A stretch of DNA of 64,000 bases from Thermosynechococcus sichuanensis E542 (GTDB taxonomy: Bacteria; Cyanobacteriota; Cyanobacteriia; Thermosynechococcales; Thermosynechococcaceae). The stretch spans positions 1,116,001 to 1,180,000 of the forward strand of contig NZ_CP032152.1 of assembly GCF_003555505.1 (NCBI RefSeq), given 5' to 3'. Position numbers and translations under genes: made by a program. A model generated the notes under the pieces. It ran no database searches. It was not told where the DNA came from and saw only the letters and a list, made by a program, of their open reading frames with translations. Of the stretch, positions 51,927 through 59,707 are shown piece after piece. Position 1 is the stretch's first letter. Every line of letters begins with the position of its first letter.

Positions 51927-52283
51927 CTAAACACTATGTATAATGCCAGACTCATTATAGTAGCACATCCTGCCTAGAATAGGAGGGGAGCTTTGGCAGT
52001 CGGCACTAGTGTTAAAGATGCCGTTTGCAGGGTAAGGCTGTAATTCCCTGAACCCTAGAAGGGAAAGCCAAGAAAAAAACGGGACAGTAGTAGCACGGCA
52101 CCTATCGCACCTGTGAATGCGCTCAAGTTTTTGCTGGTACTGCTGCTCAATGCGCTCTCGTTCTGCTTCTAGTTGGCAGCGAATGGCCTCCATGCAGGCT
52201 GGATCAAAATGGAGCGCGAGGCAGTAGCGGCTGAAGTCCTCGGTGATTCTAAGGAAAGAGTTGCAAACATCCTCCAGACTCAT
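51927..52283 (-). CDS. Uncertain small ORF between the cmr operon and serA
   Basis: 118-codon frame that overlaps the end of the cmr6-cmr1 gene by 35 nt and stops 3 nt before serA. The first 75 residues look like coding sequence: a helical or coiled-coil segment (LEAERERIEQQYQQKLERI) followed by a CDRC pair. The last third overlaps the probable serA promoter and looks like translated intergenic DNA. It could be a small Cas-associated protein or a decayed gene end. No ribosome site is seen. No family recognised. Confidence 0.35.
   Translation of the reverse strand: MSLEDVCNSFLRITEDFSRYCLALHFDPACMEAIRCQLEAERERIEQQYQQKLERIHRCDRCRATTVPFFSWLSLLGFRELQPYPANGIFNTSADCQSSPPILGRMCYYNESGIIHSV
51954..51959 (-). 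promoter_or_regulatory. -10 box of serA
   Basis: A perfect TATAAT on the minus strand lies about 30 nt before the serA ATG. No good -35 is present at the usual spacing. It lies inside the doubtful 118-codon ORF, which argues that the C-terminal part of that ORF is not coding. Confidence 0.6.
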
Positions 52284-54123
52284 CTAAGTGTTTCAGAAAC
52301 TTGAGTCGCGGATCTTTGGTAACACCAAAAATGGTAATAACTTGGTAATCCCCTAAGTCAGCAACCCAAACGGGAGAGGGTTTGCCGGTAGAACCGCAGA
52401 GGTTTTTGTCGTAGTTGTTATTCTGCTTGAAATTGTGAAGGAGTGCGAGGCCGTAGGGCTTTTCCCTTTCCCCTCTGGAATGATCCCTGCAAAGGAGGAT
52501 ACGGCAGTTTTTATCAGCGACTTCTTCCCATTGGTTAGTACTAACAGTGCCAACGGATAACAGTTGAGTAGGGTTGATGATGCGATTACCCAGCTTACCT
52601 AAAGCTTGATAAAACCCTTGAAGTCGCTGTTGAAATTTTTCTTTGAATTCCTCGGCACTCTTGGGGAGTTCCCAAAAGGTATCGCCGCTTTTAGCAATCA
52701 GATTAGACCCTCGCCACCACGGCGCTTGGTTACGTGTTTTACGAGAGTAGCAAGGACGACGCGCCCCTTGACCAATACCACCAAGGTGAAACATCAGCCA
52801 TACTAAGTTTTTTACCAACTCTGCCAAAGTATCCTTTTCAGAATCAGGAACCTCTGGGGAATAGTCCAACATGAGCGTCCCCTCTTCTACACCGCAGGGA
52901 TCATTTTTACCTTCTTGATTGGGGCGTGCCTGACATTGAGTCACTTGACCGTTGATCACCCGTACCCGCAAATAACCATGCTTGGGTTGCGGTTGAATTG
53001 AACCAAAAATCAGTCCCTCAAGGCGCTGGACTTCCGCTGGGGGCAACACCCCTCGGGCAAAGACACGAAACCAGTACCGTAGCATTGACTTAAAGGCTGG
53101 GGCACGCACCTCGTCTTCGGGTTGCCCCTGCATCCGCCATTGTTGATTTCTATCGTTCCATGTCCACCTAGTAAATTTTTGGCGACCGTGGATGAGTTGG
53201 CCTTTAACTGTAAAATCTACGCTAAAGAAGTGTTTTTGAAGTTCCACTAAAACACCGTAGCCGGCATTAACTTGGGAACCAATCCCTTGGGTCAGGCCGC
53301 GAATCAACCACCGCTTTACCTGGTGGAGCATCTCAGGAGAACAGTGCTCTGTGGGCTTGATACCAATGAGAAACGAGGTTTCTCGCAGTGAGAAGAAAAC
53401 GTTCGGATTGGCGGAGTACTTGAGGTTGCCATTGTCCCATGACCAGAGATTATTGGCCATGTCCACTGCTAGTCCTCCATTCTTTTGTTGGGGTAAGGGG
53501 TAGGCATCAAGGAAAATAATTTTGCCTGCTTTTTCGCTAGGGTTACTGCTGTCGAGATAACCAAAGTAACGCTGACCCGCGAGTTTATCTGCTTCAGCCC
53601 AAGTTACGCCTTCATTTTCCATTACTTCCCGAATGGCTTGGGCACGCGCCACACCCCGCAAGGTACTGGAGGGAATGTAGGGAATGCCTAAATTATCAAA
53701 GGCAGGTAGGAGAATACTTTCAGGACCACGGTGGCCACCAACGCGGATACGCCACGGGCAGGTGACTGGGAAGCAATTGTTTTGGCCAGCAATTTGGCGA
53801 GTTCGCTCTGTTAAGACTTTCAGGCGTTGACTGTAGTTACCCTGCTCTGCTTTTGTGACTAATTCAACTTTCGTACCATCTTTGGCTGGGCTATCGGGCG
53901 ATCGCATCCAGCGGAGGTATTCAACAAAGCCTGCAGTTGGAGCAGGGTTGGGACGTGGATCAAGGGGATGTTCTAGCCACGGTGAAGGAGGAGAGCCATT
54001 CGATGGGTTTGAGGTATGCCCAGTGCCACGGTTACCGCCAGCGTTACCACCACCTTTGCCACCGTTGGTATGAGCGCGATTTCCTGAGTTGGGTCGCTGC
54101 AAGGCGGGATTATTGGAAGTCAT
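52249..54123 (-). CDS. Cmr6-Cmr1 fusion RAMP protein of the type III-B effector
   Basis: 624 residues, about twice a normal Cmr6. Residues 1-55 are a Gly/Asn/Pro-rich flexible tail. Residues 90-330 are a Cmr6-type RAMP: LGIPYIPSSTLRGVARAQAI is the Cmr6 motif, and RGLTQGIGSQVNAGYGVL the glycine loop. Residues 340-620 resemble Cmr1: APAFKSMLRYWFRVFARG followed by LEGLIFGSIQPQP (the usual PSxRGxLRxWWR...E..IFGS pattern), then VWLMFHLGGIGQGARRPCYS as its glycine loop. No separate cmr1 exists in the operon, so the second half probably supplies the crRNA 3'-end capping subunit. Last gene, 12 nt after cmr5. Confidence 0.8.
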   Translation of the reverse strand: MTSNNPALQRPNSGNRAHTNGGKGGGNAGGNRGTGHTSNPSNGSPPSPWLEHPLDPRPNPAPTAGFVEYLRWMRSPDSPAKDGTKVELVTKAEQGNYSQRLKVLTERTRQIAGQNNCFPVTCPWRIRVGGHRGPESILLPAFDNLGIPYIPSSTLRGVARAQAIREVMENEGVTWAEADKLAGQRYFGYLDSSNPSEKAGKIIFLDAYPLPQQKNGGLAVDMANNLWSWDNGNLKYSANPNVFFSLRETSFLIGIKPTEHCSPEMLHQVKRWLIRGLTQGIGSQVNAGYGVLVELQKHFFSVDFTVKGQLIHGRQKFTRWTWNDRNQQWRMQGQPEDEVRAPAFKSMLRYWFRVFARGVLPPAEVQRLEGLIFGSIQPQPKHGYLRVRVINGQVTQCQARPNQEGKNDPCGVEEGTLMLDYSPEVPDSEKDTLAELVKNLVWLMFHLGGIGQGARRPCYSRKTRNQAPWWRGSNLIAKSGDTFWELPKSAEEFKEKFQQRLQGFYQALGKLGNRIINPTQLLSVGTVSTNQWEEVADKNCRILLCRDHSRGEREKPYGLALLHNFKQNNNYDKNLCGSTGKPSPVWVADLGDYQVITIFGVTKDPRLKFLKHLDESGGCLQLFP

Positions 54124-54135
54124 GGTGTGCTACTC

Positions 54136-54522
54136 CTATTCTGGATCTTTGCCAACGTAAAGTGCGGTTGTCCAAAAGCTAAATTCACGGGCAATTTGCA
54201 GACCTAAGCCGGTTAGGCCAAGGTAGGATTCTGTGTCAAGGTTCTTGAGGGTGTCCAAGCCTTTGTCATTGGCTAAATCCTTAACATCCGCCGTTTCCTC
54301 AAGGGCACGGAAAAAAGCTTTGACCACATCTTTCTTCCCCTCTTGACTGAGGGCTGCTTCTTCTGCCTTGAGGCGCATGAGTCCCCAGGTGGCCAAGTAG
54401 GTGTAGAGTTCGACGGCTTGGCTTTTTTGCTCCTGCAGGCGAGTGTCATCTGCTGTGCGATGCCGTAGTTCGCTCAAGGCTTTATAGACAGGCTGTGCCA
54501 TTGTGCGTGGATCGAAGGCCAT
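54136..54522 (-). CDS. cmr5: Type III-B CRISPR small subunit Cmr5
   Basis: 128 residues, all alpha-helical and charged, the normal size for Cmr5, which lines the complex next to the crRNA-target duplex. Recognisable parts are MAQPVYKALSELRHRTADDT at the N-terminus and LAWGLM-like LATWGLMRLKAEEAALSQEG in the middle. Sequence similarity within this family is low, so the call depends mainly on position between cmr4 (16 nt upstream) and the cmr6 gene (12 nt downstream). Cytoplasmic. Confidence 0.85.
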   Translation of the reverse strand: MAFDPRTMAQPVYKALSELRHRTADDTRLQEQKSQAVELYTYLATWGLMRLKAEEAALSQEGKKDVVKAFFRALEETADVKDLANDKGLDTLKNLDTESYLGLTGLGLQIAREFSFWTTALYVGKDPE

Positions 54523-54538
54523 AGCTAACTCCCAAGGG

Positions 54539-55339
54539 TTACAGGGTTACAAGTTGAACAAAGCCGCGGCCAAGGCTTTCCTGACCGCCAATTTGCAGAA
54601 TTGGATGACTATCAAACACCTCCTGTAGGTCGCTTTTGGCCTTGATTGCTGTCCCATTCAGTTGGGCAACGGTACCCCACAGAAAGTACATCAACGTATC
54701 GGGGGGAATGGCCTCTTCGTAGCGAAAGCTCCCGTCATTAACAGTTTTGTGCTCACTAAGTTTCACCCTGACTTGTCGCCAGAGGCTGGTTTCAATGAGA
54801 GTTTTGCAGTGTTGATCTGGCAGAACCAAGACCCGTTCAATTTGGGTTTGCTCACGGATGGGAACCCACTCTTGCCACTTATCCCAAGGCTTGAGTTCAT
54901 TGCTTTTGAGGATTGCATCTTTGAGATAAACGGGTTTGTTGTTGCCTAAATTGGTGCTGTAGGGGACGACTGTCCCTAAGGATTGACCAGTGAGGCGTTG
55001 CCAGCGGTGCAGCAGCATTGGGCAGCTAATCCAGATCACGCCATGACTCAGGGAAGGGACGGGTACCCACAGTAGTGAGCCATCGCCTACCCAGACTTGC
55101 CCTTGGGTGAGATTAGTGTTTGCGCCGCCCATGACATCTTCAATGGTGTTGCCCCAGAGGCGGTTACGGTTGTTTTCGGGAGTGCTGGCACGCAGACGAC
55201 CCCGAATGGTGCTGGAGGGGATATAGGGTAGCTCGGTGTGGGATTCCCGTGCAATGCCGAGCAGGTTTCCCTCTTGGGTGGTGCCGCCTGTGTGCAGAGG
55301 AGAGAGGAGGTAAAGGTAAGCAACGTTCAGCATCATCAA
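54539..55339 (-). CDS. cmr4: Type III-B CRISPR backbone RAMP protein Cmr4 (catalytic Asp apparently missing)
   Basis: 266 residues. Cmr4 forms the helical backbone that binds crRNA and, in most systems, cuts target RNA every six nucleotides. The RAMP start is YLYLLSPLHTGGTTQEG, then ESHTELPYIPSSTIRGRLR, and the C-terminal glycine loop is IGGQESLGRGFVQL. In Pyrococcus Cmr4 the stretch before RExHT contains the catalytic Asp26; here that stretch reads GNLLGIARESHT, one residue shorter and without any acid. Target cleavage may thus be lost or use another residue. It lies 61 nt after cmr3. Confidence 0.88.
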   Translation of the reverse strand: MMMLNVAYLYLLSPLHTGGTTQEGNLLGIARESHTELPYIPSSTIRGRLRASTPENNRNRLWGNTIEDVMGGANTNLTQGQVWVGDGSLLWVPVPSLSHGVIWISCPMLLHRWQRLTGQSLGTVVPYSTNLGNNKPVYLKDAILKSNELKPWDKWQEWVPIREQTQIERVLVLPDQHCKTLIETSLWRQVRVKLSEHKTVNDGSFRYEEAIPPDTLMYFLWGTVAQLNGTAIKAKSDLQEVFDSHPILQIGGQESLGRGFVQLVTL

Positions 55340-55400
55340 TCACCACTATGCGGTCAAAGTGTATGGGTGCTCACATATTTATCCATTGAGGTTGAACCAG

Positions 55401-59554
<4,154 letters not shown>

Positions 59555-59707
59555 GGATAGGCTTCCTAGAACAATTGACTCCACTGCGGATAACCAACCG
59601 GCCAGCAGGCGGGCGGTCGCAGCTAATGTTTTATCCAGCGTAGTTAGTCGGAATATGCAGGAGAGGCAAAACAAACAATTTTTTGTAATCTTTAACAATT
59701 TTTATAA

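What the first reader, a model, noticed from the sequence alone, without database searches (positions are those of the whole stretch)
54539..55339. Cmr4 appears to lack the target-RNA cleavage aspartate
In Pyrococcus furiosus Cmr4, Asp26 just before the RExHT motif cuts target RNA. In this Cmr4 the equivalent stretch, GNLLGIARESHT, has no aspartate or glutamate and is one residue shorter. Meanwhile Cas10 keeps GGDD and LHDP. The complex might thus recognise RNA and signal through Cas10 without slicing the target, keeping the target bound and prolonging the signal.
Basis: partly seen in the sequence, partly recalled or inferred. Interest (0 to 1): 0.72.

Follow-up and report, generated by a model that had tools for sequence, protein, structure and literature searches.

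The report
Slicer-less Cmr4 of cyanobacterial type III-B CRISPR
In nearly all cyanobacteria that carry one kind of RNA-sensing CRISPR machine, the backbone subunit lacks the amino acid thought to be needed to cut the captured viral RNA, while the alarm-signal enzyme and its responder proteins are kept, so the machine probably works as an alarm rather than as scissors.

Summary
The window's Cmr4 (minus strand, 55339-54539) has H16-TGGTTQEGNLLGIARE32 where canonical Cmr4 has G-V-V-D26-x-P-I-x-R-E: one residue shorter, with no acid in the seven residues before Arg31. In an unbiased sample of cyanobacterial hits, 89 Cmr4 loci lack the Asp and one keeps it; outgroups all have it. On a tree built without the loop columns, the D-less cyanobacterial Cmr4s form one clade, so one ancient loss suffices. 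The gene is under purifying selection (dN/dS 0.07-0.09), Cas10 GGDD is intact in 101/101 loci, and 89/118 loci have a CARF effector gene beside them. The window's genome has two intact CARF-HEPN genes in trans; seven Cmr-less congeners have none intact. Synechocystis III-Bv (Sll7087) belongs to the clade and gives plasmid immunity in published work. Most likely the complex binds target RNA and signals through Cas10 with little or no slicing. Absence of cleavage is not shown: E23, invariant in the window's subgroup, could in principle substitute, though a sister subgroup has no acid in the loop. New variant of a known kind.

The parts
54539..55339 (-). cmr4 (Cas7 backbone subunit) without the slicer Asp; first in-frame ATG at about 55336
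   Evidence: TIGR02580 121 bits; PADLOC Cmr4; fold match Z 22.2 to Pfu Cmr4; dN/dS 0.07-0.09 within the genus
55244..55273 (-). loop E23-GNLLGIAR-E32; canonical Cmr4 has Asp five residues before the Arg, here a deletion plus invariant Asn25
   Evidence: loop pLDDT under 50 at residues 20-26
55283..55297 (-). L15-H16-T-G-G; His equivalent of Pfu H15, retained
   Evidence: His invariant in all groups
54701..54724 (-). R206-Y-E208-E-A-I-P-P motif; Pfu W225 is replaced by R206, E227 is kept as E208
56522..59698 (-). cas10/cmr2, with LHDP (59513-59524) and GGDD (57209-57220); homology starts near residue 49
   Evidence: PADLOC Cas10b 1242 bits; motif columns
55401..56519 (-). cmr3
   Evidence: Pfam Cas_Cmr3 114 bits
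54136..54522 (-). cmr5 (Cas11)
   Evidence: PADLOC Cmr5 E 8e-59
52249..54123 (-). cmr6-cmr1 fusion, 624 aa (Cmr6 part about residues 110-292, Cmr1-like part about 330-570)
   Evidence: PADLOC Cmr6 and Cmr1 models, TIGR01898/TIGR01894; no separate cmr1 found

Best explanation
The cyanobacterial III-B lineage (including Synechocystis III-Bv) lost the target-RNA slicer Asp of Cmr4 once, long ago, and kept the rest of the complex. The crRNP binds viral transcripts. Target binding activates the Cas10 Palm domains to make cyclic oligoadenylate (and the HD nuclease where it survives, as in the window). The messenger activates CARF-HEPN RNases, encoded beside most loci and in trans in the window's genome. 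Because Cmr4 cuts bound target RNA little or not at all, the usual off-switch is missing. The activated state should last until the RNA dissociates or is destroyed by the effector or host RNases, and the signal until it is degraded. Shown here: Asp loss, its single-clade distribution, purifying selection, conservation of GGDD, association with CARF effectors. Inferred: loss or strong slowing of cleavage, prolonged Cas10 activity, alternative off-switch.
For: Asp absent in 89 of 90 class-Cyanobacteriia Cmr4 hits of an unbiased whole-protein search (the seven GNNNP RAMPs set aside) and in all loci of a pattern-based scan. D-less cyanobacterial sequences are one clade, SH-aLRT 99, loop columns excluded; two changes of state in all. 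dN/dS 0.07-0.09. GGDD 101/101, whereas the HD motif is lost in 35/101. CARF effectors near 89/118 loci, CARF-HEPN or CARF-RelE by PADLOC on cluster representatives. Own genome: two intact CARF-HEPN genes with RxxxxH. Four Cmr-positive congeners have an intact copy, seven Cmr-negative have fragments, stops or nothing, Fisher p 0.003. CRISPR arrays near most loci. Literature: the Asp coordinates the metal and is shared by all type III active sites examined (PMC11026444); D26N blocks cleavage in vitro in Pfu (PMC7192623); cleavage plus release switches cOA off (PMC6053304); Synechocystis CRISPR3, which has this Cmr4, gives efficient anti-plasmid immunity (PMC9676260).
Against: No assay. E23 is newly gained and invariant in the window's subgroup and sits in a loop the model leaves disordered, so it might reach the scissile phosphate. 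B. fragilis D27A still cleaves slowly (PMC10600005). Asp loss gave dormancy or death in S. islandicus and could not be made in wild-type P. furiosus (PMC9368842, PMC7192623), so a viable slicer-less lineage needs some other control, which was not found: homologues of the Synechocystis Csx3 are rare beside these loci and Csx3 was not found in the genomes of the window's genus.
Confidence: 0.68

Rival explanations
1. Slicing survives through a substitute acid: the glutamate just before GN (E23) folds into the active site in place of Asp26, or Asn25 with a bound metal suffices.
For: E23 is the only acid clearly gained relative to canonical Cmr4 and is 100% in the window's subgroup; group 4 has D/E just before I(A/V)RE. 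Arg31, His16 and Glu208 are retained. The whole motif is strongly conserved.
Against: Subgroup 3 (L066, L067, L091, L201, L202, L203) has no acid anywhere between His16 and Arg31, yet the members with a readable Cas10 keep GGDD and some have CARF genes beside them. The acids of the different groups sit in different columns. D26N alone blocks Pfu Cmr4 (PMC7192623).
Confidence: 0.17
2. A slow residual cleavage remains without the Asp (RNA-driven in-line cleavage), so the change sets a long timer rather than removing the off-switch.
For: B. fragilis D27A cleaves more slowly rather than not at all (PMC10600005); natural slow slicers exist (Vme Cmr, PMC8682760); type III sites resemble ribozymes (PMC11026444).
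Against: D26A and D26N abolished cleavage in V. metoecus and P. furiosus (PMC8682760, PMC7192623).
Confidence: 0.1
3. Target RNA is cut by another part: the Cmr6-Cmr1 fusion, the Uma2-family protein encoded between cmr4 and cmr5 in some loci, or the CARF-HEPN effector recruited to the complex.
For: Fusion found across the clade; Uma2 in 27/118 loci; CARF genes beside most loci.
Against: Uma2 is absent from most loci and from the window; a Cmr1-Cmr6 fusion also occurs in a D-bearing locus (L248); no catalytic motif was identified in the fusion.
Confidence: 0.03
4. A decaying relic with no function.
For: No effector or array directly beside the window's operon.
Against: Intact operon, dN/dS below 0.1, clade-wide motif conservation, intact trans effectors and CRISPR arrays in the genome, published immunity by the Synechocystis homologue (PMC9676260).
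Confidence: 0.02

Closest known systems
Synechocystis sp. PCC 6803 CRISPR3, subtype III-Bv (Cmr4 = Sll7087)
   Same: 61% identical Cmr4 with the same D-less loop, same gene order cas10-cmr3-cmr4-cmr5-cmr6/1. Immune function reported (PMC9676260).
   Different: The Cas10-Cmr3 half is of another clade (Cas10 32% identical); Csx3-AAA and an aspartic-protease-like ORF lie nearby. The absence of the slicer Asp was not mentioned in the papers that could be read.
Canonical III-B Cmr (P. furiosus, Thermus thermophilus, Saccharolobus islandicus Cmr-alpha)
   Same: Same subunits and fold; His15, Arg31, Glu227 equivalents and Cas10 GGDD kept.
   Different: They have Asp26/27 and slice target RNA every 6 nt; separate cmr1 and cmr6 in Thermus and the other plasmid-borne outgroups.
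Engineered slicer-dead Cmr4 (Pfu D26N, Sis D27A, Vme D26A, Bfr D27A)
   Same: The same position is lost; such mutants give or are thought to give prolonged Cas10 activity.
   Different: Laboratory mutants, dormant or dead in S. islandicus and unobtainable in wild-type P. furiosus (PMC9368842, PMC7192623); here the loss is natural and stable across the class.
Type VII
   Same: Natural Cas7 without conserved target-cleavage residues (PMC12669027).
   Different: Type VII cuts RNA with Cas14, which carries only a Cas10 remnant domain (PMC12669027); here GGDD Cas10 and CARF effectors are kept.

Membership tests
Type III-B (Cmr) effector module | Operon with Cas10/Cmr2, Cmr3, Cmr4, Cmr5, Cmr6 and Cmr1 | tested here: met
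   Cmr1 present only as a domain fused to Cmr6
Type III-B (Cmr) effector module | Cmr4 fold | tested here: met
   Z 22.2 to 4w8w, rmsd 2.5 over 222 residues
Slicing Cmr4 | Catalytic Asp five residues before the conserved Arg | tested here: not met
Slicing Cmr4 | 6-nt periodic target-RNA cleavage | not testable with these tools
   needs a biochemical assay
cOA-signalling type III | GGDD in the Cas10 palm | tested here: met
   window and 101/101 related loci
cOA-signalling type III | CARF-type effector in the genome | tested here: met
   two CARF-HEPN genes in trans with RxxxxH motifs
III-Bv (Synechocystis CRISPR3 kind) | Homologous Cmr4 with the same loop and gene order | tested here: met
III-Bv (Synechocystis CRISPR3 kind) | crRNA maturation by RNase E instead of Cas6 | not tested
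   Cas6 and array processing in this genome were not examined; PMC10989914 describes it for Synechocystis

The most novel reading that the evidence does not exclude
Essentially the whole cyanobacterial III-B lineage is a naturally slicer-free, signalling-only branch of type III-B CRISPR that lives without the target-cleavage off-switch whose loss causes dormancy or death, or cannot be obtained, in two archaeal III-B hosts.
Probability: 0.6. Interest if true: 0.8.

Novelty: new variant of a known kind. Interest (0 to 1): 0.66.

Why it matters
Backbone cleavage of target RNA has been called ubiquitous in type III systems and is thought to be what switches Cas10 off (PMC6053304). Removing the same Asp caused dormancy or death, or was impossible, in two archaea (PMC7192623, PMC9368842). 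A class-wide lineage that has done without it makes it directly testable whether slicing is really the off-switch, and what replaces it. It also bears on the published Microcystis complex, whose authors assumed Asp catalysis (PMC11855584): every Microcystis Cmr4 examined here lacks that Asp. Natural D-less complexes may also be of use as sensitive RNA sensors.

Tried and rejected
A single-genome mutation or sequencing error: rejected, as the motif is shared across at least 37 named genera. A conserved acid common to all D-less groups and absent from canonical Cmr4: none found. Direct array or effector beside the window's operon: none found, but arrays and effectors exist elsewhere in the genome. 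Searching the own genome with the array repeat of a congener found nothing; a generic repeat-end pattern did. A Csx15/20 ring-nuclease label for the small ORF between cmr3 and cmr4 in Synechocystis was not accepted: the PADLOC model is a mixed 'Csx15/20/peptidase' one and the sequence reads to me like a clan AA aspartic protease. Association of HD loss with adjacent CARF genes: not significant in either Cas10 clade (p 0.37 and 0.10). Residue-level superposition could not be made because model coordinates are not returned. Behler 2018 and Shah 2019 are not held, so it cannot be excluded that the missing Asp was noted there. No stated report of it was found in the searches made.

Full report
Observation. 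The finding's coordinates hold a minus-strand ORF that is a genuine Cmr4 by NCBIfam, PADLOC and predicted fold, inside an intact operon cas10-cmr3-cmr4-cmr5-cmr6/cmr1. Its loop reads H16-TGGTTQEGNLLGIA-R31-E32. P. furiosus reads H15-PGSGTELGVVD26QPIQ-R31-E32. The seven residues before Arg31 hold no acid and the loop is one residue shorter.

Distribution. A whole-protein search of 386 genomes of the phylum found 76 with a match. Of 101 loci aligned from that sample, 89 have the GN-without-Asp loop, seven are a different RAMP (RGNNNP), one is odd (L251), and four have the Asp. Of those four, only L235 lies in the same class; the other three are in other classes of the phylum. A pattern-based scan gave 80 further named loci, all D-less, but that scan used the loop as one of two patterns and is biased. 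Outgroups from Thermus, Allochromatium, Aeromonas, Paenibacillus, Azospirillum, Allomeiothermus, Runella, Vibrio and Pyrococcus all have the Asp. On a tree from which the loop was excluded, the 68 D-less cyanobacterial rows form one clade (SH-aLRT 99), and two changes of state suffice for all 82 rows, one of them in L251. It is a quick tree with long branches, so the exact branching is uncertain.

Substitute acids. Only E23 is clearly gained in the window's subgroup. Six sequences of a sister subgroup (L066, L067, L091, L201, L202, L203) have no acid between His16 and Arg31. Group 4 has acids in other columns. The loop is disordered in the model, so a structural answer was not available.

Is the system alive? 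dN/dS within the genus is 0.07-0.09. Across related loci Cas10 GGDD is kept in 101/101, while the HD motif is lost in 35/101, mostly in the window's own Cas10 clade, though not in the window. 89 of 118 loci have a CARF effector gene nearby. CRISPR arrays are found near most loci. The window's genome has two intact CARF-HEPN genes elsewhere, up to 45% and 44% identical to effectors that sit beside D-less operons, both with an RxxxxH motif. Among eleven genomes of the genus, the four with cmr4 have an intact CARF-HEPN gene and the seven without it have fragments, stop-interrupted copies or nothing (Fisher p 0.003, not corrected for kinship).

Mechanism. In studied type III complexes target-RNA cleavage and release switch Cas10 off (PMC6053304); slicer-dead Cmr4 could not be made in wild-type P. 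furiosus and gave dormancy or death in S. islandicus (PMC7192623, PMC9368842). The simplest reading is that the cyanobacterial complex senses RNA and signals through cOA with little or no slicing. Published work reports that the Synechocystis CRISPR3 system, which has this Cmr4, mediates anti-plasmid immunity (PMC9676260, citing Behler 2018). The Microcystis MaCmr complex gave about tenfold T4 resistance in E. coli and about tenfold more with Csx1 (PMC11855584); its gene order (Uma2 between cmr4 and cmr5, Cmr1-6 fusion) matches several Microcystis loci seen here, all D-less, but its own Cmr4 sequence was not examined.

Limits. No cleavage assay, no residue-level superposition, and two key papers not held. 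How a slicer-less lineage avoids autoimmunity remains open: homologues of the Synechocystis Csx3 are rare beside the loci and Csx3 was not found in the genus; other ring-nuclease families were not searched for.

Noticed in passing
L033, L064 and others against window 52249-59698: Cas10-Cmr3 and Cmr4-Cmr5-Cmr6/1 behave as two modules that were swapped: L033 has Cmr4 63% but Cas10 33% identical, L064 Cmr4 37% but Cas10 51%.
   Followed up: partly
Cas10 of L035, L038, L050, L057, L059, L061, L063 and others: HD motif eroded in 27 of 32 relatives of the window-type Cas10 while GGDD is kept.
   Followed up: yes
L178:9834-10511 and 26 other loci: A Uma2-family (putative nuclease) gene lies near cmr4, typically between cmr4 and cmr5, in 27 of 118 loci.
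   Followed up: no
L121:9529-9909; L051; L056: Small ORF antisense between cmr3 and cmr4 in Synechocystis, annotated peptidase, reads like a clan AA aspartic protease.
   Followed up: no
L318, L319, L320, L321: CARF-HEPN genes are stop-interrupted, split or reduced to fragments in congeners that lack an intact cmr4.
   Followed up: yes
L221, L233, L234, L237, L238, L244, L249: A further RAMP family with RGNNNP[IV][YF]R at the same loop, also without the Asp; subunit identity not worked out.
   Followed up: no
L082-L090, L104, L211: Another cyanobacterial III-B-like clade (short Cas10) with GEESGNLNLIFRD, also D-less.
   Followed up: partly
G000:C1:503109-504100 (L296) and about 2003000-2012000 (L265, L266): A CRISPR array with repeats ending AATGGAAAC with no cas genes recognised in the flanking 40 kb, and a type I-like cas operon (by eye) with a Cas1 fusion and its own array.
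   Followed up: partly
cluster 1, for example L186:140-2266: Reverse-transcriptase ORFs (YADD), by eye RT-Cas1-like, near 56 of 118 loci.
   Followed up: no
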